From NCBI GenBank assembly GCA_937873495.1, contig CALMXZ010000010.1, positions 496,001 through 560,000 of the forward strand: DNA of 64,000 bases, given 5' to 3'. The position numbers and the translations under genes were made by a program. Under the pieces are notes generated by a model. That model saw only the letters and a program-made list of their open reading frames with translations, was not told the origin of the DNA and searched no databases. This stretch comes from an uncultured Trueperaceae bacterium (GTDB lineage Bacteria > Deinococcota > Deinococci > Deinococcales > Trueperaceae). The stretch's first letter is position 1. Each line of letters begins with the position of its first letter. Shown piece by piece: positions 34,242-54,492 of the stretch.

Positions 34242-37046
34242 ATGAAGAAGCTAATCATCACGCTCCTGGCGGCGATCACGGCCAGCGGCGCCTTCGCTCA
34301 GTACTCGTTCCCGGACATCCCGGCGAACCACTGGGCCGGCGACGCCGTCGACCGCATCTCCAGCCTCGGCATCGTCATCGGCTTCCCCGACGGAACCTTC
34401 CGTGGCAACGAAGCCTTCACGCGTTACCAAGCCGCTCTCGTTGTCAGCCGCCTGCTTGACGTCATCAATGACAACCTCAACTCGGCGCTCGCGCTCACCC
34501 AGGCTGACGTCGACTCGCTGCGCAACGCCGTGCAAGAGCTCGCCTCTGACGTCGCTGCCCAGGGCGTGAGGCTGTCCGCCGCCGAGAGCGCCATCGCCGG
34601 CCTCTCCGACGACGTGACCGCCAACACCGCGCGCCTCGACGACCTGGAAGCCGCCCTCGCCGGCGGTGGCGTCGATCCCGCGGTCCTCCGCGATCTGCAG
34701 AACCAGATCGCCTCGCAGCGTGTCGCCCTCGACACGGCGCAGGCCCAGGCCGACGCCGCCGCTGCTCGCGCTGACGCCGCCTACAGCCTGGCCAACCAGG
34801 CCAACACGCTCGGCCGTCAGAACGCCGACGACATCGCCGCCCTCAACCGCGCCCTCCAGCTCCTCCAAGCTGACGTGGCCGGCCTCAAGGGTGGTTCGTC
34901 CGCCGGCGGCACCGCCGCCCCGGTCGATCTCTCGGCCGTGAACAGCGCCATCGAGCGCAACCGTTCGGACATCGCGAACATCCGCGAGTTCGTCCTCCTC
35001 ATCCGCAGCAACCAGATCGCCATTCGCGACCGCGTCTCGGCCCTGGAAGCTTCGGACGCCGCCCAGAACGCTGCCATCGCGGACCTCCAAGGCCGCGTCG
35101 CCGCGCTCGAAACGAACCCCCTCGGGATCTCGGGCAGCATCTCGGTCACGTACTACGTCGGCCGCGTCATCGGCCAGGAGTTCGACGTCGACCGCGCGTA
35201 CGGCCTGAACAACCTGCGCAACATGGGCGCGTCGGTCTTCTCGTCCGGCGCAGCCGAACTCGACGGCGACCGTAGCGGCACCCGCAACTACCGCACGGAA
35301 GTCGGCGAAGTCGCTCAGGACCGTCACGACATCGAGCACGTCCCCGGCTCCGCGACCGCCATCCTCGACCTGAGCTTCGCCACGAAGTTCGGCTTCGATG
35401 GTCAGGGCAGCCCCAACAAGCTCAACAGCTTCAGCGGCGTCCTCTCCATCGCGATGGATGACCAGCGCGTCACCGGCCCCGTCGTCCTCAACTCCGAGCC
35501 CTCCCTGCGTTGGTTCGAAGTTCGCAAGTTCATGACGACGTTCGAACCCATCGGCGCCGTGCCGCTCACCTTCTCGTTCGGCACGAACGTCGAGACGAGC
35601 TTCACCCCGTACGTCGTCGCCACCGACGACCCGGGCTTCGTCGCCACCATCGGCGCGCCCAGCTTCCTCGCCTTCCTCAACCCTGGCATCACGGCCGTCT
35701 ACGTCAGCAGGAACGACGCTACGGACGCGAACTACAACCAGGAGTGGTACGGCAACTACCTGCGCGGCGTCCGTCTGACGATCAGCCCCCTCGAGGGCCT
35801 GACGCTCGGCGGCAGCTTCGCTCAGTACGCTGAACGCGCCGGCGACAAGGACGACTACCTCGCCGACAACCAGCAGCTCACGGTCTGGGGCGTCGACGGC
35901 AGCCTCTCGCTGTCCATCTTCGACCTCGGCTTCGAGTGGGCCAACGGCTCCGGCGGCGCTACGGCCGAGTCCGTCCTCTACGCCACGCTCGACGTCGATA
36001 CCGCTGGTATCCCGATCCTCTCGAGCCTCGGTGCCAACTACCGCAGCATCAGCGACGCCTGGACCTCCAACGGCTACGACCTCGGCGCCGACGCCGATGC
36101 CTTCCCGTTCGTGGAAGACCAGAGCGGCTTCGGCGTGAACGCCGGCCTCAGCCTGTTCATCGTCGACCTGAGCGCGTACTTCGACTCCTACGGCACGGTC
36201 GCTGGCGACAGCGCCATGTCCTTCGGTGTCGACGCCACGGCTAACCTGTTCGCGGGCTTCAGCCTCGGCGGCTGGTACCACTCGGCCTCCGTCAACGGCA
36301 CGACCGTCGACGACCTCCGCACGTACGTCGATGCCAACGAGGCCGCTGTGGCCCTCGCCGGCGCCGACATCGAGCGCGACAACAACTACAACACCGGCTT
36401 CGGTGTCACGCTCAAGCATGACGGCGCTGCCTCCAACGCCCTCATCAAGGGCCTGAACATCTCGGCCGGCTACTCGCAGACCGAAGCGGACTTCAGCAAG
36501 ACGACCCTGTTCGTTGACGCCGACTACAGGCTCAACGTCTCGATCCTCTCGCTGACCCCGTACGTCGGCTACCGCATGGTCAACGACGCCGACGCCGGCA
36601 CGGATGACACCACCACGCTCCGCGTTGGCACGGGTCTCTCCACCACGCCGCTCGACGTCTACACCAAGCCCAGCCTGATCGCTGCGGTCAACTACCGCAA
36701 CACCGATCACAGCGACGCGGCCGTCTACACGGCGAGCGAGCTGCAGTGGAGCGTTGGCCTCGTCCTGAACGAGTTCATCTTCGACCACAGCACCCTCACC
36801 GCCAAGTACGGCAGCTGGACCGGCACCAACATCAACAACGCGACGAACACTCGCGGCGCTGGTGACGGGGCCACGGACATCAGCGCTGGTGACGTCAACG
36901 GCACCGGCACGCAGTCCGTCTCCGGCTACGAACTCATCTGGAACTACTACGACCTCGAGTTCGCCTACGGCACCTACGAGAACAACAACAACGGTGTCGC
37001 CTCCTCGGCTCAGGCCTTCCAGATCAGCTACACCGTCACCTTCTAA
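34242..37046 (+). CDS. slpA: SlpA-type S-layer/outer-membrane protein (SLH, coiled coil, beta-barrel)
   Basis: A 934-aa exported protein. The signal peptide is MKKLIITLLAAITASGAFAQ. One SLH domain follows (~20-80; FPDIPANHWAGDAVDRISSLG and GFPDGTFRGNEAFTRYQ). A long alpha-helical/coiled-coil stalk (~85-300) comes next, then a beta-strand-rich C-terminal part ending in YTVTF with terminal Phe, as in outer-membrane barrels. The SLH domain binds pyruvylated secondary cell-wall polymer, so the protein tethers the outer membrane to peptidoglycan, as in Thermus and Deinococcus SlpA. Codon choice is strongly biased, with few rare codons, consistent with high expression. Strong promoter, long leader and strong terminator flank it. 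Confidence 0.93.
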   Translation: MKKLIITLLAAITASGAFAQYSFPDIPANHWAGDAVDRISSLGIVIGFPDGTFRGNEAFTRYQAALVVSRLLDVINDNLNSALALTQADVDSLRNAVQELASDVAAQGVRLSAAESAIAGLSDDVTANTARLDDLEAALAGGGVDPAVLRDLQNQIASQRVALDTAQAQADAAAARADAAYSLANQANTLGRQNADDIAALNRALQLLQADVAGLKGGSSAGGTAAPVDLSAVNSAIERNRSDIANIREFVLLIRSNQIAIRDRVSALEASDAAQNAAIADLQGRVAALETNPLGISGSISVTYYVGRVIGQEFDVDRAYGLNNLRNMGASVFSSGAAELDGDRSGTRNYRTEVGEVAQDRHDIEHVPGSATAILDLSFATKFGFDGQGSPNKLNSFSGVLSIAMDDQRVTGPVVLNSEPSLRWFEVRKFMTTFEPIGAVPLTFSFGTNVETSFTPYVVATDDPGFVATIGAPSFLAFLNPGITAVYVSRNDATDANYNQEWYGNYLRGVRLTISPLEGLTLGGSFAQYAERAGDKDDYLADNQQLTVWGVDGSLSLSIFDLGFEWANGSGGATAESVLYATLDVDTAGIPILSSLGANYRSISDAWTSNGYDLGADADAFPFVEDQSGFGVNAGLSLFIVDLSAYFDSYGTVAGDSAMSFGVDATANLFAGFSLGGWYHSASVNGTTVDDLRTYVDANEAAVALAGADIERDNNYNTGFGVTLKHDGAASNALIKGLNISAGYSQTEADFSKTTLFVDADYRLNVSILSLTPYVGYRMVNDADAGTDDTTTLRVGTGLSTTPLDVYTKPSLIAAVNYRNTDHSDAAVYTASELQWSVGLVLNEFIFDHSTLTAKYGSWTGTNINNATNTRGAGDGATDISAGDVNGTGTQSVSGYELIWNYYDLEFAYGTYENNNNGVASSAQAFQISYTVTF

Positions 37047-45910: not shown

Positions 45911-46300
45911 ATGACAGAGAAGGACATGGCGTTCTACCAGGCCTGGGCCGACCTGCTCGAGTGGATGCGCGAGTACGCGGCCGAGCACGAGGGCGTCCGG
46001 TTCGTGAAGCAGGCCGACTTCACCGACTACATCTACCGCATGGCCCGCCCTTACGACCTCCCGACCACCATCCTCTCGGCGAGCCTCTCGAACGACCACG
46101 ACGAGCCCATCCTGCTCGCGTCGGCCAGCCAGCGCGCCTCAGTCTTCAAGGAGGTCGTGCTGCACCCCTTCGAATCGCACGTCTACCGGAAGCTGGCGTT
46201 GGCGAAGGACGGTTCGGGTCTGAGCGAAGGGCCGCGGCGCTTCACCAAGGAGGCGCTCTACCGCCTCGGTGACGAGCTGTTCGCGGTGGCGCTAGCCTGA
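45911..46300 (+). CDS. Small protein of unknown function upstream of the cyclase gene
   Basis: A 129-aa soluble protein that I do not recognise. It begins MTEKDMAFYQAWADLLEWMR, then KQADFTDYIYRMARPYDLP, a strand-rich centre (TTILSASLSNDHDEPILLASA) mentioned in outline, and ends in a helix with FTKEALYRLGDELFAVALA. No signal, membrane helix or catalytic motif. Composition is balanced rather than low-complexity, and the -10 box 6 nt before ATG supports expression. Its stop overlaps the likely CTG start of the cyclase gene, so the two are probably translationally coupled. Confidence 0.7.
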   Translation: MTEKDMAFYQAWADLLEWMREYAAEHEGVRFVKQADFTDYIYRMARPYDLPTTILSASLSNDHDEPILLASASQRASVFKEVVLHPFESHVYRKLALAKDGSGLSEGPRRFTKEALYRLGDELFAVALA

Positions 46301-49300
46301 CCGACCTGCTGGGCGCGCTCGGCGCCTACCTGCCGGAGGATCGCTTGGCCGAGCTGGGTGGCGGCCCGGCGGTCCCCGAGAGGAGCCGCGGCGCCGTCCT
46401 GTTCGCCGACGTCGCCGGCTTCACCGCCCTGACCACCAGCCTGGCCGAGCTGTTCGGCCCACGGCGCGGGGCGGAGGAAGTCCCCGTCTACCTGAACCGC
46501 CTGTACGAGGCGCTGATCGGCGAGGTGCACGCCCGCTCCGGCAGCGTCATCGGCTTCGCCGGGGACGCCATCACGTGCTGGTTCCCCGGCGACGACGGTC
46601 ACGCCGCCGTGGCGTGCGGCGTCGCCATGCAGGCCGCCATGGCCCCCTTCGCCGCCCTTCGCATAGGCGGCGCGCGCGCCACGACCACCGTCGCCCTCGA
46701 GGTCAAGGTCGCGGTCAGTTGCGGAACGGCGCGGCGCTTCAGGGTGGGGGACGAGGCCGTGCAGCTTATCGACGTCATCGCCGGCGACCCCGTGGCCGAG
46801 CTCGAGGCCCTCAACGACGCGTCCGCCAAGGGTCAGGTCGTGCTCAGCGCCGCCGTGGCGGCGGCCGTAGGTGACGCGGCGCTGCTGAGCCCGCTCGACC
46901 GCCCGACCGCGCCCGCCGGCGCCATGACGCTCCGTGCGCCGAGCGATCCGGTCGTTGGAGGGCGGCGCGACACGCCTGCGCTAGCAGGCGCACACTCTCC
47001 GGCGACCCTCGCTGAGCACGCCCCCGCCGAGGATGAGCTCGGCCGCTGGCTGCTGCCGACGGTGAAGAGGCGGCTGAGCGCGGGTGGGGGAGACTTCCTC
47101 ACGGAGCTGCGTCCGGTGGCGGCGCTGTTCCTCGCCTTCGCAGGCATCGACATGGCGCACGACGAGGAGGCCGGCGCGAAGCTCGACCTGCTCGTGCGCC
47201 GCGTCCAGCAGGGCGTGACCGAGTACGGGGGCGACATGCTGCAGCTCACCACCGGCGACAAGGGCACGTACCTCTACGCCGCGTTCGGCGCCCCGGTGGC
47301 GCACGAGGACGACGTGGCCCGCTGCGCCGCCGCCGCCCTCGAGCTGCGCGAGGCCCTCCTGGGGCTCCCGTTCGTCGAGGAGCTGAAGATCGGCCTCGGC
47401 TACGGCACCGCGCGCACGGGGGCGTACGGCTCGGCGGCGCGCCGCACGTACGGCGCGCTCGGGCGCGGCACGAACATGGCGGCGCGCATGATGAGCGCCG
47501 CGCCCCACGCCGGCATCTACGTGAGCGGCGCCTTCGCGGAGGCGCTCGTGGGCGGCTTCGACCTGCGGCCGCTCGACGGCGTGGTCGTGAAGGGCAGCGC
47601 TACGCCCGTGGCGGCCTTCGAACTCGAGGGCCGGTCGGCGGTCGCCCGCCGGGGGCGGGCCGAGGCCACCGGCCGAGCGCTGGTGGGCCGGGCCACGGAG
47701 CTGGCGGCCATCTCGTCCGGCATAGCGGAGGCGGCGGCGGGCCGCGGCGGCGTGATCCAGGTGGTGGCAGAGGCCGGGCTTGGCAAGTCCGAGCTGCTGG
47801 TGCGCGCGCTGCACGGCGCCAGGGACGTGCGCGTCGTCGGCGGCGCCTGCCAGGCCTTCGGGCGCACGGCGCCTTACCAGCTCTGGAAGGGTGTGTTCCG
47901 GCAACTGCTCGGGTTGGAGGCCGCCGCTGCCGCGGGGGAGCGCCTGCCGGGTCTCGAGGCGGCCTTGGCCGCCGTCGATCCCGCCCTCGTCGACCAGGCC
48001 GACCTGTTGGCTCCGCTGCTCGACCTCCCCACCCCGCCCGCCGGGGGCTACCAGGCGTCCGACGCCGAGGAGCGCAACGCCAGGCGGCTCGCCCTGCTCC
48101 TCAACCTCTTCCGCCACGCGGCGCGAGCCTCGGCGCGGCGCGGCATGACCCTCGTGCTCCTGCTCGAGGACCTCCATTGGCTCGACCCCGCCTCCGCCGA
48201 CCTACTCGCCGAGCTCGCCCTGAGCGTGCCCAGCCTGCCGGTCCTGGTGCTCACGTCTGCCAGGCCGCGGGACGACGGGCGGGCCGGCGTCGTCGGCGAG
48301 GTGCCTGGCGCGCGGGTCTTGCGGTTGGGGCCACTGGACGAGCAGGCTGCGCTCGCGGTCGTGGCCGCCCGGTTGGCCGAGGCGGGGCAGGCCGTCCGGC
48401 TGAGCGACGAGCTGGCGGTGCGGATCGTGGAGCGCTCCGCCGGCAACCCCTTCTACTTGGGCGAACTGCTGACCGACCTCCTGCAGCGGGCGGCGCCGGC
48501 CGGCGGAGGCCTCGACCTGACCGACCTGGCGGAGCTGCCCACCAGCCTCCACAGCCTCATCCTCGGGCGCCTGGATCGCCTGGAGCTAGCTGCGCAGATG
48601 AGCCTCAAGGTGGCGAGCGTCGTAGGCAAGCAGTTCCGGGTCGGTTGGGTGAGCGCTTGCCAAGGCGCCGCCGACGAGCTGGCCGCCGCCGCTTTCGTGG
48701 CTACCGACCAGGCCGGCCTGACCGAGCGCATCCTCGCCGAACCGCCCACGCACGCCTTCAACCACGCCATCACGCGCGACGTCACTTACGACAGCCTCTC
48801 CAACGCCACCCGCCTGCAACTGCACACGCGGCTCGGCCGGTTCATCGAGCAGCACGTCGCAGGCGCATCGGAGCCGAACCTCGACCTGCTCGCGTACCAC
48901 TTCGCGCTCGGCGACGACACCGCCAAGGCGCGCCACTACCTGCGGGCCGCCGGCGCCGCGGCCAAGGCCGCCTACGCCAACGAGGCCGCGATCGACTACT
49001 TCGAGCGGCTGCTCGCACTGCAGGACGGCGCCGAGCGCTTGCCGACGCTGCTGGAGCTCGGTGAGGTCATGACCTTCGTCGGCTCTTACGGCGCGGCGGA
49101 GGAGCGACTCGAGGCGGCGGCGGCGTTGGCGGCCGGCATGGGGGAGCGGCTGAGCGAGGCCGCCGCGCTGCGGCTCCTCGGCGAGCTCTACGAGCGCCAA
49201 GGCGATCACGGTCGGGCCAGAGCGCGCCTCGAGGGCGCCGCGCGGCTGTGCCGTGAGCTCGGCGACGGCGCGGAGCTGACCCGCGTTCTCCTGGCGCTCG

Positions 49301-50106
49301 GCGGGAACGTGCTGTGGCACCTGGGCGTCTACGACGAAGCGGAAGCGCTCCTCGCGGAGGCGGAGGCGTTGGCGCGCGCGGCAGGCGACGCGCGCGCGGC
49401 GGCGAGGGCGCTGCACGGCACGGCGAACATCCACCTCTACCGTGGCGAGGCCGGGGCCGCGGAGGCCGCGTTCCTCGCCAGCCTCGAGCTGCGCAGGGGA
49501 GCCGGCGACGATTACGGTGTCGCCAACGCGCTCAACAACTTAGCGATCGTCTCGGCCAACGCCGGCGACGGCGCTCGCGCTGAGGAGCTGTTCGCCGAGA
49601 GCCTCCTGATACGGCAGCGCCTTGGCGACGTGGCCGGCGTGGCCGTGGCCCTCAACAACCTCGGTTACATGGTGGCCGAGCGCGGCGACCTTACCGGCGC
49701 GCGGGCGCTGTACGAGCAGAGCCTCTCTTCCAGGCGCGAGCTTGGCGACCGGCTCGGCTTGGCCATCTCGCTCAACAACCTCGCCGGGTTGGTGGCGCGC
49801 CTCGGCGCGACCGAGGAGGCAAGGCACCTCTACCTGGAGAGCGTCGGGCTCGCGAGCGCCATCGACAACCGCCGGGAGACCGCTACCGCGCTGGCCGGGT
49901 TGGCGAGCGTGGTGGCGGAGGACACGGACGCTGCCCGCATGGCGCTCGCGGGCGAGCTGCTCTTCGAGCGCATCGGCGCCGCGGTGGACGAGGACGTGCG
50001 GGCCGCCATCGCGACCGGCAAGGCGCGTGGGCGGCGCTCTGACGTTCCGGCCGGGCTCGCGGACGGGCCGCTTACCGACGTCGTCGCCTGGGCGCTACGC
50101 GGCTAG
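46297..50106 (+). CDS. Soluble-adenylyl-cyclase-like protein: two class III cyclase domains, AAA ATPase, TPR
   Basis: About 1269 aa. Cyclase domain 1 (~30-200) keeps both metal Asp (LFADVAGFT; GFAGDAITCWF) but lacks the transition-state Asn/Arg. Cyclase domain 2 (~270-440) lacks the first metal Asp (ALFLAFAGID) but has GDKG and GRGTNMAARM with Asn and Arg. Together they could form one active site, as in animal soluble adenylyl cyclase, which shares the cyclase-cyclase-NTPase-TPR layout. The AAA domain has Walker A AEAGLGKSELL (~491) and Walker B LVLLLEDLHWLD (~620). TPR repeats cover ~890-1230. The adenine-selecting Lys is not obvious, so ATP or GTP use is open. Start: TTG 46345 has GGAGG 5 nt upstream. 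The family-typical AYLPEDRL lies before it, so CTG 46297, overlapping the previous TGA, is preferred. Confidence 0.82.
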   Translation: MTDLLGALGAYLPEDRLAELGGGPAVPERSRGAVLFADVAGFTALTTSLAELFGPRRGAEEVPVYLNRLYEALIGEVHARSGSVIGFAGDAITCWFPGDDGHAAVACGVAMQAAMAPFAALRIGGARATTTVALEVKVAVSCGTARRFRVGDEAVQLIDVIAGDPVAELEALNDASAKGQVVLSAAVAAAVGDAALLSPLDRPTAPAGAMTLRAPSDPVVGGRRDTPALAGAHSPATLAEHAPAEDELGRWLLPTVKRRLSAGGGDFLTELRPVAALFLAFAGIDMAHDEEAGAKLDLLVRRVQQGVTEYGGDMLQLTTGDKGTYLYAAFGAPVAHEDDVARCAAAALELREALLGLPFVEELKIGLGYGTARTGAYGSAARRTYGALGRGTNMAARMMSAAPHAGIYVSGAFAEALVGGFDLRPLDGVVVKGSATPVAAFELEGRSAVARRGRAEATGRALVGRATELAAISSGIAEAAAGRGGVIQVVAEAGLGKSELLVRALHGARDVRVVGGACQAFGRTAPYQLWKGVFRQLLGLEAAAAAGERLPGLEAALAAVDPALVDQADLLAPLLDLPTPPAGGYQASDAEERNARRLALLLNLFRHAARASARRGMTLVLLLEDLHWLDPASADLLAELALSVPSLPVLVLTSARPRDDGRAGVVGEVPGARVLRLGPLDEQAALAVVAARLAEAGQAVRLSDELAVRIVERSAGNPFYLGELLTDLLQRAAPAGGGLDLTDLAELPTSLHSLILGRLDRLELAAQMSLKVASVVGKQFRVGWVSACQGAADELAAAAFVATDQAGLTERILAEPPTHAFNHAITRDVTYDSLSNATRLQLHTRLGRFIEQHVAGASEPNLDLLAYHFALGDDTAKARHYLRAAGAAAKAAYANEAAIDYFERLLALQDGAERLPTLLELGEVMTFVGSYGAAEERLEAAAALAAGMGERLSEAAALRLLGELYERQGDHGRARARLEGAARLCRELGDGAELTRVLLALGGNVLWHLGVYDEAEALLAEAEALARAAGDARAAARALHGTANIHLYRGEAGAAEAAFLASLELRRGAGDDYGVANALNNLAIVSANAGDGARAEELFAESLLIRQRLGDVAGVAVALNNLGYMVAERGDLTGARALYEQSLSSRRELGDRLGLAISLNNLAGLVARLGATEEARHLYLESVGLASAIDNRRETATALAGLASVVAEDTDAARMALAGELLFERIGAAVDEDVRAAIATGKARGRRSDVPAGLADGPLTDVVAWALRG

Positions 50107-50239: not shown

Positions 50240-52171
50240 ATGGCTGGTGCAGACCTTCTGAAGCGTCGTCGTATGCGGGCATGGCGTCTGGGCGGACGGC
50301 TGCTCGCCCTCACAATGTTGCTGGTCCTCGTGTCGTGCCAGACGGCGCCGCCGCCCACCCCCGCCGCCGACCCCGAGTTCGATCAGGCCGCCGAGCTGGA
50401 GGCCTTGAACCTGCCCGTCAACGAGGCGTTGCGAGTGCGGTTCCTGCCTCCGCTCGCCAAGAAGGTCCCGACGGGCGACTTCGTCAGCGGCCTCGATCTG
50501 GAGATCAAGTTCTTCAACGTCGACCCCGTGACGGGCGTCGCGAGCGGCTCGGCGCTCAGCGGAACTTTGTCGACCGCGAAGCGCACCATCGCGTCCCAAC
50601 GCGACACCTACGCCACCATCTGGCTGGCGCTCGGCACGACCCTCGACCGCAAGGCGAGCCAGTACCTGCGGGCGGAGATCAGGACGGCGGGCGCTGGGAA
50701 CTCACCCGTGTGCAACGGCGGGTCTCAGGCCTGCCTCGGCTACCTCGACATCTTCGCGTTCAAAGGCCTCTTCCTTGGTCGCCAGAACGTGCCGGACGGC
50801 TTCGTGCCCGTCCCGTCCGTGCTCGGCGTGCTCCCCATCGGCTTCAAGGTCCTGCCGCAGGCGGCGCCGCCGGTCGAAGGCCCGCCCCCGGCCACGCTCG
50901 GCGAGCTGACGAGCCTCTCGGGTGGCATGTTCGACGAGCAGGCCGGCAACTGCGCGTCGTCGTTCCTCACGCGTCCCGGTCAGGGCCTGCAGGCGGTGGG
51001 GGCCGGGCTGCAGGCCGTCGGCGCCGTCGGCGGGCTGTTCCAAGGGCAGACGAGCAGCTTCAACGGCACCCTGGTCACGCCGGCGCAGGTCGCCGCCGAG
51101 CTGGACCAGCAGTTCTCCGTGGCGGGGAGCAGCGCGCGCTCCGTCATCCTCGTCGTCGACGACTTCAGCAACGGCTACGAGCTCCCGGCCGCCGTCTTCC
51201 AACCGGGCGCCGACCTCTCCGCCCTGACCGGACAGATCTCGCACGGCGCCCTCGTCTTGCATCACATCCTCGAGACCGCCAACCTGTTGGACGACAGCTA
51301 CCCGCTCGGCGCCGATTACGCGACGCCGGGAGGCTACTTCGACGGCCAGCCGTACTACGGCTTCGGCTTCAACGGCGTCGAGTTCTTCGTCCAGGCCGTG
51401 AACGCCGGCCAGTTCGACACGGACACGATCGCGGACAAGATCCGCGCGGCGATGCTGTACTACGGTGTCGGCGCGGGCGAGGCGAGCAACATGGTCGTGA
51501 ACATGAGCTTCGCCGTCGTGCCGTGCAGCGTGCTGCACGACTACGCCTCCACCACGGGGCTGGCCACCTTCCAGGACTACCTCGGCGCCCTGGCCGCGCA
51601 GAACCGCGTCGGTGCCCAGTACGTCGGTGAGTTGGACCAGCTCGTCTCGACCCCGGTCGATCTGGGCGGCGACCCGCTCCTCGCCTTCATCGACTGCCCG
51701 CTGCCGAGCCCGGACTGGGAACGGTGCGATGGCGGCGTCGGGACGGGTAGCGCGGTCGTCGACAAGCTCTTCATGGTGGCGTCGTCCGGCAACTACGGTA
51801 ACGGCTACCCGCTCTACCCGGCCGCCGCCGCGAACGTCATCAGCGTCGGCTCCCTCGCGGCCGTCGCGGGGGGCGGGTACTCCGCGGCGAGCTACTCTAA
51901 CCTGGCGGAGGTCGCGGCGCCGGGGGGCCTCTTCGAACTGGCGTCCGGGGGCGGTAGCACCGTCGCGTACGCGGGCACCTCGTTCGCGGCGCCGGTGGTC
52001 AGCCTCTTCCTCGGCATCGACAACATGACCCACCAGCCGCGCTGCTATGGCCCGAACCTCGACGAGCGGGAAGCGCCCGGCATGGCGTACGGCGGTACAG
52101 ACATGCTGCCGTTCTACGGGCCGTTCGGTACCCCGAGCGCCCTGGCCTACTACTGCCCACGCCCCGGCTGA
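50240..52171 (+). CDS. Subtilisin-like (S8) serine protease lipoprotein
   Basis: A 643-aa exported protein. The signal peptide RLLALTMLLVLVSCQ ends in a lipobox with Cys near 34, so it is a lipoprotein. The catalytic triad is inferred as Asp in VILVVDDFSNG (~305), His in ISHGALVLHHI (~333) and Ser in YAGTSFAAPVV (~577), with the oxyanion Asn in VVNMSFAVV (~418). A ~250-residue N-terminal region before the protease domain is unlike the usual I9 propeptide and resembles no domain I know. HGALVLHH departs from the standard HGTHVAG. ATG 50240 follows GGAGG. The next gene starts 9 nt after its stop, so protease and transporter are co-transcribed. Confidence 0.8.
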   Translation: MAGADLLKRRRMRAWRLGGRLLALTMLLVLVSCQTAPPPTPAADPEFDQAAELEALNLPVNEALRVRFLPPLAKKVPTGDFVSGLDLEIKFFNVDPVTGVASGSALSGTLSTAKRTIASQRDTYATIWLALGTTLDRKASQYLRAEIRTAGAGNSPVCNGGSQACLGYLDIFAFKGLFLGRQNVPDGFVPVPSVLGVLPIGFKVLPQAAPPVEGPPPATLGELTSLSGGMFDEQAGNCASSFLTRPGQGLQAVGAGLQAVGAVGGLFQGQTSSFNGTLVTPAQVAAELDQQFSVAGSSARSVILVVDDFSNGYELPAAVFQPGADLSALTGQISHGALVLHHILETANLLDDSYPLGADYATPGGYFDGQPYYGFGFNGVEFFVQAVNAGQFDTDTIADKIRAAMLYYGVGAGEASNMVVNMSFAVVPCSVLHDYASTTGLATFQDYLGALAAQNRVGAQYVGELDQLVSTPVDLGGDPLLAFIDCPLPSPDWERCDGGVGTGSAVVDKLFMVASSGNYGNGYPLYPAAAANVISVGSLAAVAGGGYSAASYSNLAEVAAPGGLFELASGGGSTVAYAGTSFAAPVVSLFLGIDNMTHQPRCYGPNLDEREAPGMAYGGTDMLPFYGPFGTPSALAYYCPRPG

Positions 52172-52179
52172 GGTCGAGG

Positions 52180-54492
52180 ATGCAGCACGAGGAGCCCCTC
52201 GCGGCCGCGAGCGGCAGGGCGGCAGTGGAGCGCGCCGCGGCCAGGGACGGTGCCGCCGAGGGCCGTGCCGTGCCCGAGGGCCGCGCCGTGGCCGCCGGCC
52301 ACGCGCTGTCCGTAGCCTGGCTCGTGCAGAACACGAGCGTCGGGCTGGTCCTCGGCGCTCTGGCGATCACCATGGACATCTCGCTGGCCGCCCTCCTGTA
52401 CGGCGGCCAGCCCGAGTACCTCGGGCGCGGCATCGGGCTCGTGTTGCTGGGTGGGGTGATGCTCCCGCTGGTGGTCACGCTCCTCACCTCCCTGCCCGGG
52501 ATCTTCGCCAACGCCCAGGATGCGCCCGCCGCCGTGCTCGGCGCCCTGGCGGCGGTGCTCGGCACGCAGCTCGTGGCCGGAGCGCCGCTCGCCGGCGAGG
52601 AGCGGTTCTTCACCATGGTCGCCATCGCGGCCTGCACGGCCCTGGCGACCGGCGTCGTGTTCATGCTGTTCGGCTTCTTCCGCCTCGGCAGCCTGGTGCG
52701 CTACTTGCCGTACCCGGTGCTCGGCGGCTTCATGGCCGGCACGGGTTGGCTCCTCCTCACCGGCGGGGTGGGCGTCATGTCCGGCATCAGGCCGAGCCTG
52801 CACTACCTCACGGACCTGCTGGCGACCGACATGCTCGTGCTGTGGGTGCCCGGCGTGGCGCTCGCCGTCACCCTGTTGGTGCTCACGCGCCTCCACCGTC
52901 ACTTCCTCGTCTGGCCCGCCACGATGCTGCTCGTCACCATCGGCTTCTACGTCGTCATGGCGCTCACGGGCGGCGACGTCGAGGCCTGGCGTGCGCGGGG
53001 CCTCCTGCTCGGACCGTTCCCCGCCGGCTCGCTGCTGGCGCCCTTCAAGGCCGCCGAGCTGCAGGCGGTGCAGTGGGACGTCGTCCTGGACCACCTGCCT
53101 ACCATCGCCTCCGCGATACTCATCTCCTTGATCGCGCTGCTGCTGAACGCCATCGGCGTCGAGCGCGTGACGGGGCGCAAGGGCGACCTCAACCGCGAGC
53201 TCCGCGCCGCCGGCCTCGGCAACCTACTGTCGGGCGGCCTCGGCGGCGCCCCCGGTTACCAGAGCCTGAGCTTCTCGACGTTCAACTTCACGGCGGGCAC
53301 GGGCTCCCGCTACGCGCCCCTCGTGGCCGTCGGTGCCATGGCCGCGTGCCTCCTGTTCGGCGCCGGGGTCGTCGCGCTGGTGCCGAAGGCGGTGGTGGGC
53401 GGCCTGCTGGCGTACTTCGGCCTCAAGTTCCTGCATCAGTGGCTCTACGAGGCGCTCTTCGAGCTGCCGCTTAGCGAGTACCTCGTGGTGGTGGCCATCC
53501 TCGCGGTCATCGTCGTGGCGGGCGTGCTGCCGGGTGTCGGGGTCGGCCTCGTCCTCACCGTCGTCCTGTTCGTAATCAGCTCGAGCCGCACGGACGCCGT
53601 CAGGTACGCGTTGGGCGGCGCCGACCTGCGTTCGCGCGTGACGCGCAGCGCGGCGGAACTGGCGCGCCTCGCCGAGCACGGCGGCGAGCTCATGGTCGTG
53701 CAACTCCAGGGGTTCCTGTTCTTCGGCACGGCCACCGCGCTCCTCGAACGCCTCGAGCGCCGCGTGCGCTCCGGACCGGCCGTGCGATCGGTCATCCTCG
53801 ACTTCTCGCGCGTGTCCGGGGTCGACGCCACCGGCCTGGCGACGATCGAGGACGTCTTCAAGCTCGGCGAGAACTCCGGGTTCGAGCTCCTGCTCAGCGC
53901 GGTGCCGGAGCGCCTCTACGGGCGCCTCGCTCGGGGACGCAAGGGCGGTAAGGGCGACGCGGGCGCGGCGCCCCGTTTCGCCAGGCTCGACGCCGCGTTG
54001 GAGCACGCCGAGGAGCGCCTGCTGGAGCGCTGGGACGGGAAGCGCGACGTGCGGGGCACCGAGGTGGACGCCGTCGCCTACTACTCCGCCACCGGCTTCG
54101 CCTTCGCCGACCTGCTGCCGTACCTGAGCCGCCGGGAGCTGCGCGCCGGCGAGGTGCTCATCCATAAGGGCGACAAGGCGGACGAGCTCTACTTCCTGGT
54201 CGAGGGCCAGATGACGGCGGTGGCGGAGGGCGGTGACGGCGCCGCCACGCGCCTGGAGACCCTGCGCTCGGGTGGGCTGCTCGGGGAGCTGGGGTTCTAC
54301 CGCGGTGGCCTGCGCAGCGCCACCGTCCGCGCCGACCGCGAGTCGACGCTGCTCGTGCTCGACGATGGGGCCCTGGCGAGGCTGACGGCCGAGGCGCCCG
54401 CGTTGGCAGCCGACCTGCACCGTCAGGTGGCGCGGCTCATGGCGGGCCGGGTGCTGCACTTGATGGCGGCCGTCGACGCGTTGGAGCGCTAG
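52180..54492 (+). CDS. SulP anion transporter with STAS and cyclic-nucleotide-binding domains
   Basis: A 770-aa protein. After ~45 variable residues come about 12 helices of the SulP fold (to ~470), including GFMAGTGWLLLTGGVGVMSG and LSGGLGGAPGYQSLSFS. The STAS domain (~500-600) has VVQLQGFLFFGTATALLERL and VILDFSRVSGVDATGLATIED. The C-terminal cNMP domain (~643-765) has LRAGEVLIHKGDKADELYFLVEG and the phosphate-binding-cassette-like GELGFYRGGLRSATV with its Arg. Transport of sulfate, bicarbonate or another anion is possible. Control by cAMP/cGMP is suggested by the cNMP domain and by the cyclase gene upstream. Its TAG stop overlaps the stop of the convergent gene through a CTAG. Confidence 0.88.
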   Translation: MQHEEPLAAASGRAAVERAAARDGAAEGRAVPEGRAVAAGHALSVAWLVQNTSVGLVLGALAITMDISLAALLYGGQPEYLGRGIGLVLLGGVMLPLVVTLLTSLPGIFANAQDAPAAVLGALAAVLGTQLVAGAPLAGEERFFTMVAIAACTALATGVVFMLFGFFRLGSLVRYLPYPVLGGFMAGTGWLLLTGGVGVMSGIRPSLHYLTDLLATDMLVLWVPGVALAVTLLVLTRLHRHFLVWPATMLLVTIGFYVVMALTGGDVEAWRARGLLLGPFPAGSLLAPFKAAELQAVQWDVVLDHLPTIASAILISLIALLLNAIGVERVTGRKGDLNRELRAAGLGNLLSGGLGGAPGYQSLSFSTFNFTAGTGSRYAPLVAVGAMAACLLFGAGVVALVPKAVVGGLLAYFGLKFLHQWLYEALFELPLSEYLVVVAILAVIVVAGVLPGVGVGLVLTVVLFVISSSRTDAVRYALGGADLRSRVTRSAAELARLAEHGGELMVVQLQGFLFFGTATALLERLERRVRSGPAVRSVILDFSRVSGVDATGLATIEDVFKLGENSGFELLLSAVPERLYGRLARGRKGGKGDAGAAPRFARLDAALEHAEERLLERWDGKRDVRGTEVDAVAYYSATGFAFADLLPYLSRRELRAGEVLIHKGDKADELYFLVEGQMTAVAEGGDGAATRLETLRSGGLLGELGFYRGGLRSATVRADRESTLLVLDDGALARLTAEAPALAADLHRQVARLMAGRVLHLMAAVDALER

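What the first reader, a model, noticed from the sequence alone, without database searches (positions are those of the whole stretch)
46297..50106. Bacterial protein with the layout of animal soluble adenylyl cyclase and two complementary half-active cyclase domains
Seen: two class III cyclase domains, an AAA domain with Walker A and B, and TPR repeats in one ~1270-aa chain. Domain 1 keeps both metal-binding Asp (FADVAGFT, AGDAI) but not the Asn/Arg pair. Domain 2 has the Asn/Arg pair (GRGTNMAARM) but has lost the first Asp (FLAFAGID). Known: in animal sAC and tmAC, C1 and C2 contribute these same residues to a single site. Inference: the protein is a pseudo-heterodimeric cyclase gated by its AAA/TPR part.
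Basis: partly seen in the sequence, partly recalled or inferred. Interest (0 to 1): 0.75.

Follow-up and report, generated by a model that had tools for sequence, protein, structure and literature searches.

The report
Bacterial soluble-adenylyl-cyclase-like protein with local effector
This bacterial gene encodes a cousin of the animal "soluble adenylyl cyclase", an enzyme whose two half-sites are split between two domains; that layout was already known from other bacteria, but here the gene is repeatedly found beside proteins that can bind such an enzyme's product, which suggests a compact local signalling unit.

Summary
The gene (46297-50106 +) encodes two class III cyclase domains, a STAND-type AAA_16 NTPase and TPRs. 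A profile of the family hits human soluble adenylyl cyclase (sAC, 4clf) across both domains in one stretch (E 1.3e-45). In 44 bacterial sequences from many lineages the reciprocal losses are almost invariant: both metal Asp in C1 44/44, Asn and Arg in C2 43/44 and 44/44, first C2 Asp never present. So one composite active site is well supported by sequence; my structure prediction failed (pLDDT 37). The layout is not new: two-domain sAC-like cyclases were reported in Chloroflexus in 2004.

What differs: (1) the bicarbonate residues of mammalian sAC are absent (K95 is Gly, R176 is Glu); (2) the base-reading pair is Gln/Gly, not Lys/Thr, so the substrate is uncertain; (3) in Deinococcota the gene is linked to cyclic-nucleotide effectors (SulP-STAS-CNB in the window; patatin-CNB, paired PycTM or stand-alone CNB elsewhere) in 6 of 8 genomes tested, and, in six loci, to a lipoprotein family seen only in sACL genomes. 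Best reading: a STAND/TPR-gated nucleotidyl cyclase feeding a locally encoded CNB effector. Activity, substrate and gating are untested.

The parts
46297..50106 (+). sAC-like cyclase gene (sACL): C1-C2-STAND NTPase-TPR, 1269 aa, likely CTG start overlapping nqo15 stop
46378..46941 (+). C1 cyclase domain (aa 28-215), keeps both metal Asp (D38, D90)
47080..47637 (+). C2 cyclase domain (aa 262-447), keeps N393/R397, lacks first metal Asp (A280)
47242..47244 (+). Q316, at the adenine-recognition Lys334 position of human sAC; invariant Gln in the 11 sequences of A1
47452..47454 (+). G386, at the Thr405 position of human sAC; invariant Gly in the 11 sequences of A1
47680..48249 (+). STAND-type NTPase (AAA_16): Walker A 492-498, Walker B LLLEDLHWLD 621-630; GNPF motif further on at aa 716-719
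49012..49896 (+). TPR array (TPR_12, TPR_10, MalT-like); limits approximate
45911..46300 (+). nqo15 (NADH-quinone oxidoreductase chain 15), overlaps sACL start by 4 bases
50240..52171 (+). subtilase (Peptidase_S8) with lipobox-like leader (LLVLVSC); second gene of the conserved cassette
52180..54492 (+). SulP-STAS anion transporter with C-terminal cyclic-nucleotide-binding domain (CNB 54130-54390); starts 8 bases after the S8 gene

Best explanation
The protein is a sAC-type, single-chain, pseudo-heterodimeric class III nucleotidyl cyclase. C1 supplies the two metal Asp and C2 supplies the Asn/Arg pair to one productive site; the second site is dead. The C-terminal STAND NTPase plus TPR array most likely acts as a sensor switch that holds the cyclase off until a ligand binds (inferred). 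The cyclic nucleotide is most likely read locally by the CNB domain of the SulP-STAS transporter encoded two genes downstream, in the same probable operon, so that the sensed signal changes anion transport (inferred from conserved linkage). The substrate is probably ATP but cannot be assigned, because the base-reading pair is Gln/Gly. Direct activation by bicarbonate through the mammalian site is unlikely, because both of its basic residues are missing.
For: Profile match to human sAC over C1 and C2 in one stretch, E 1.3e-45, against 2.1e-24 for the best single-domain cyclase. Reciprocal residues in 44 sequences: D47 44/44, D99 44/44, N412 43/44, R416 44/44, C2 first Asp 0/44. STAND hallmarks and TPR. 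The cassette sACL + S8 lipoprotein + SulP-STAS-CNB is also together in another genus (G082, 50/38/42% identity) where the rest of the neighbourhood differs. CNB domains lie within about 4 kb of the sACL gene in 6 of 8 Deinococcota genomes, against about 1 CNB per 310 kb, with different effector types: SulP, patatin, CRP-like, stand-alone CNB. The SulP CNB passes Pfam's cut-off and keeps the GE...RSA phosphate-binding motif.
Against: No usable structure and no activity data. In 30 loci fetched from other lineages only two had a CNB gene nearby (confirmed), so the linkage is lineage-specific. G098 and G102 have no CNB gene in the regions fetched. The genome has seven other CNB matches and one other class III cyclase gene, so the product need not act only on SulP.
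Confidence: 0.6

Rival explanations
1. A Pycsar-like defence system: the STAND/TPR part senses infection, the cyclase makes a cyclic mononucleotide (possibly cUMP or cCMP), and a neighbouring effector damages the membrane or metabolism.
For: PF18967 PycTM above cut-off occurs in only 2 of 111 genomes of the phylum; both carry sACL, and all four copies lie within about 4 kb of it. A patatin with two CNB domains adjoins sACL in G038. The base-reading pair is non-canonical. Clade A PycC enzymes also carry two cyclase domains (PMC11224242).
Against: No PycTM in the window's own genome. Window neighbours are housekeeping or ordinary genes and the tested flanking genes hit no PADLOC model. PycC models hit the protein only weakly (1e-9, part of one domain). 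I know of no SulP transporter that acts as an abortive-infection effector.
Confidence: 0.2
2. A conventional bicarbonate- or pH-responsive adenylyl cyclase like mammalian sAC or the reported Chloroflexus enzyme, making a global cAMP pool for CRP-type regulators.
For: Same catalytic layout by profile. A Chloroflexus sAC-like cyclase was reported bicarbonate-responsive (review PMC11006738). The genome encodes several other CNB proteins.
Against: K95 is Gly and R176 is Glu here; R176 is Arg in none of the 44 bacterial sequences. Neutralising these residues removes bicarbonate response in human sAC (PMC12867704). The adenine-reading Lys and Thr are both replaced.
Confidence: 0.15
3. Both cyclase domains are catalytically dead and serve as a nucleotide- or ligand-binding module for the STAND protein.
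For: Q316 and G386 replace the usual base-reading residues; C1 is too divergent for Pfam.
Against: All metal, Asn and Arg positions are kept in all Deinococcota sequences and in nearly all 44, and the PPi-contacting Lys144 is Lys or Arg in 40 of 44.
Confidence: 0.05

Closest known systems
Mammalian soluble adenylyl cyclase (ADCY10)
   Same: C1-C2 order, the same split of catalytic residues, DKG loop in C2, an LRPV-type strand before C2, NTPase after the catalytic core (the last from PMC6023465)
   Different: K95 to Gly, R176 to Glu, K334 to Gln, T405 to Gly. Similarity of the C-terminal part to ADCY10 was not tested (no full-length chain among the PDB hits)
Chloroflexus aurantiacus sAC-like cyclases (Kobayashi, Buck and Levin 2004)
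   Same: Bacterial two-domain sAC-like cyclase with a long C-terminal part (details from memory; the paper is cited in PMC11006738, but is not held)
   Different: Sequences could not be compared here; bicarbonate response was reported there and is not expected here
Pycsar pyrimidine cyclases (PycC; clade A has two cyclase domains)
   Same: Class III cyclase; CNB or PycTM partners encoded near related loci
   Different: Only weak partial matches to PycC models; the published PycC base-reading residues differ; the STAND/TPR part is an addition
TOMM system kinase/cyclase fusion (TIGR03903)
   Same: C2 through TPR aligns, 158 bits
   Different: Far below the 706-bit cut-off; the match starts in C2 and no kinase domain was found in this protein
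Sperm sAC with the CNB-bearing exchanger sNHE (SLC9C1)
   Same: A sAC-type cyclase coupled to an ion transporter that carries a CNB domain (PMC6660944)
   Different: An analogy only: the transporter here is SulP, not a Na+/H+ exchanger

Membership tests
sAC-type class III cyclase (catalytic core) | C1 and C2 in one chain, aligning to sAC across both | tested here: met
   E 1.3e-45, profile positions 28-438 to residues 37-469
sAC-type class III cyclase (catalytic core) | Metal Asp pair only in C1; Asn/Arg pair in C2 | tested here: met
sAC-type class III cyclase (catalytic core) | Adenine-recognition Lys334 and Thr405 in C2 | tested here: not met
   Gln and Gly; some other bacterial members keep Lys/Thr
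sAC-type class III cyclase (catalytic core) | Bicarbonate residues K95 and R176 (mammalian sAC; often lost in non-mammals, PMC12867704) | tested here: not met
   Gly and Glu
sAC-type class III cyclase (catalytic core) | Head-to-tail C1-C2 dimer | tested here: inconclusive
   prediction failed, pLDDT 37; inferred from homology to 4clf
sAC-type class III cyclase (catalytic core) | Cyclic nucleotide production from ATP | not testable with these tools
   needs a biochemical assay
STAND NTPase | Walker A, Walker B with the HWxD extension, GNP motif, superstructure repeats | tested here: met
Pycsar | Pyrimidine cyclase PycC by family model | tested here: inconclusive
   weak partial hits, 1e-9 and 3e-4
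Pycsar | Adjacent PycTM or PycTIR effector | tested here: not met
   no PycTM in the window genome and no TIR gene among the neighbours scanned; PycTM pairs are near sACL in G023 and G038
TOMM kinase/cyclase TIGR03903 | Score above the curated cut-off | tested here: not met
   158 against 705.75 bits

The most novel reading that the evidence does not exclude
In Deinococcota, two-domain sAC-like STAND/TPR cyclases with a Gln/Gly base pocket are the signal generators of a previously undescribed modular signalling system. A surface lipoprotein partner (a small conserved lipoprotein, or a subtilase lipoprotein) and exchangeable local cNMP effectors (SulP-CNB transporter, NTE-type patatin-CNB, PycTM pairs, stand-alone CNB) make up the rest, and the messenger may not be cAMP.
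Probability: 0.3. Interest if true: 0.75.

Novelty: new variant of a known kind. Interest (0 to 1): 0.5.

Why it matters
Animal sAC is thought to have a bacterial origin (PMC6023465), and the role of its C-terminal NTPase part is poorly understood. A bacterial group in which a sAC-like cyclase is encoded next to its probable effector gives a small, testable system for asking what the STAND/TPR part senses and what the product does. The pairing with a CNB-bearing SulP transporter recalls the sAC-sNHE pair of animal sperm. The PycTM and patatin-CNB neighbours raise a link, not shown here, between sAC-like cyclases and Pycsar-type signalling.

Tried and rejected
A scan of viral contigs found no relative. 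The single genome-contig scan, made with one sequence, found one close relative. Membership of TIGR03903 was rejected on its cut-off. The idea that the ~540-aa genes upstream of several homologues are one common partner was tested and rejected: they belong to unrelated families. The idea that every bacterial sACL has a CNB neighbour was rejected: outside Deinococcota only two of 30 fetched loci had one. The Chloroflexus paper and the human sAC structure paper are not held.

Full report
Observation. The gene at 46297-50106 (+) is real: open frame, changes against a relative concentrated at third codon positions, 127/127/295, and full-length homologues. The domain content is as stated. C1 is missed by Pfam but recovered by alignment to human sAC and to C2.

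Catalytic residues. The best PDB relative by sequence is human sAC; a profile of 11 Deinococcota sequences aligns to it over both domains in one stretch at 1.3e-45, while single-domain cyclases score 2.1e-24 or worse. Using the sAC residue table in PMC12867704, the window has the D47 and D99 equivalents in C1 (D38, D90), the PPi-contacting K144 (K137), and N412 and R416 in C2 (N393, R397). Thr405 as an adenine contact is from my own knowledge. Over 44 sequences the two C1 Asp are 44/44, R416 44/44, N412 43/44, and the C2 first Asp 0/44. This is strong evidence for one composite site per chain across the whole group. Head-to-tail pairing is inferred from homology to 4clf; my prediction failed.

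What differs from sAC. K95 is Gly in all Deinococcota sequences and R176 is Glu or Ala; R176 is Arg in none of the 44. These two residues bind bicarbonate in human sAC and their neutralisation removes the response (PMC12867704), so the mammalian mechanism is not expected. Caveat: a Chloroflexus member was reported bicarbonate-responsive (PMC11006738). The base-reading positions K334 and T405 are Gln and Gly, invariantly in the Deinococcota set, while many other bacterial members have Lys/Thr. Published pyrimidine cyclases use yet other residues (PMC11224242), so the substrate cannot be assigned.

Context. Upstream is nqo15. Downstream are a subtilase with a lipobox-like leader (50240-52171) and, 8 bases on, a SulP-STAS transporter with a C-terminal cNMP-binding domain (52180-54492). 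The three genes sit together in two congeners and in G082, of another genus, where surrounding genes differ. In more distant Deinococcota homologues the neighbours change but keep the theme: NTE-type patatin with two CNB domains plus two PycTM genes (G038), two PycTM genes and a CRP-like CNB gene (G023), a stand-alone CNB gene (G084), a CNB gene at the contig end (G101). CNB domains average one per 310 kb in these genomes; six of eight sACL genomes have one within about 4 kb (binomial 7e-9 for 4 kb and 8e-8 for 6 kb flanks under independence; shared ancestry makes this optimistic). PycTM above cut-off occurs in only two of 111 genomes of the phylum, both beside sACL.

A lipoprotein family. Six loci carry, just downstream and convergent, a lipobox protein of one family with no Pfam match in the members scanned. 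At E below 1e-10 the family occurs in only these six genomes of 111, all with sACL (hypergeometric 2e-7), and each of the six has its best-scoring copy beside sACL. In the window clade a subtilase lipoprotein holds the downstream slot. Its role is unknown; a sensor or envelope partner is a guess.

Mechanism. Shown by sequence: a complete composite active site, STAND NTPase motifs, TPRs, conserved linkage to cNMP effectors. Inferred: catalysis, gating by NTPase/TPR, and local action of the product on SulP. A Pycsar-like defence role is a rival, stronger for the PycTM loci than for the window, which has no PycTM and ordinary neighbours.

Known or new. Two-domain sAC-like bacterial cyclases are known (Kobayashi, Buck and Levin 2004), two-domain PycC exists, and a putative NTPase after the sAC core is noted in reviews (PMC6023465). 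The linkage to CNB and PycTM effectors and to the lipoprotein family, and the Gln/Gly pocket, I did not find described in the open-access library searched; subscription papers, including the original Pycsar and Chloroflexus papers, could not be read.

Noticed in passing
L063:7083-7634+, L064:11952-12509-, L065:6267-7085+, L066:15386-16027+, L067:12476-13258-, L040:3826-4503-: A small lipoprotein family with no Pfam match in the members scanned, found in only six of 111 genomes of the phylum at E below 1e-10, all carrying the sAC-like gene, with the best copy beside it.
   Followed up: partly
L063:3618-4799-, L064:6785-7811-: Pairs of PycTM (Pycsar effector) genes near the sAC-like cyclase in two genera; the only above-cut-off PycTM genes in 111 genomes of the phylum.
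   Followed up: partly
G000:C11:476660-477163 (L068): The only other class III cyclase gene found in this genome: a single-domain cyclase with an N-terminal Cys motif and an ATPase-like C-terminal part, 705 aa open frame.
   Followed up: no
L047:4848-9041: A Leptospira borgpetersenii plasmid gene annotated only as a cyclase-domain protein has the same C1-C2-NTPase layout with all composite-site residues.
   Followed up: partly
L101-L130: The base-reading pair varies widely among bacterial sAC-like proteins (Lys/Thr, Arg/Thr, Gln/Gly, Ser/Ser, Gly/Thr and others), which hints at different substrates.
   Followed up: no
window 34242-37046: SlpA-type S-layer protein with an SLH domain.
   Followed up: no
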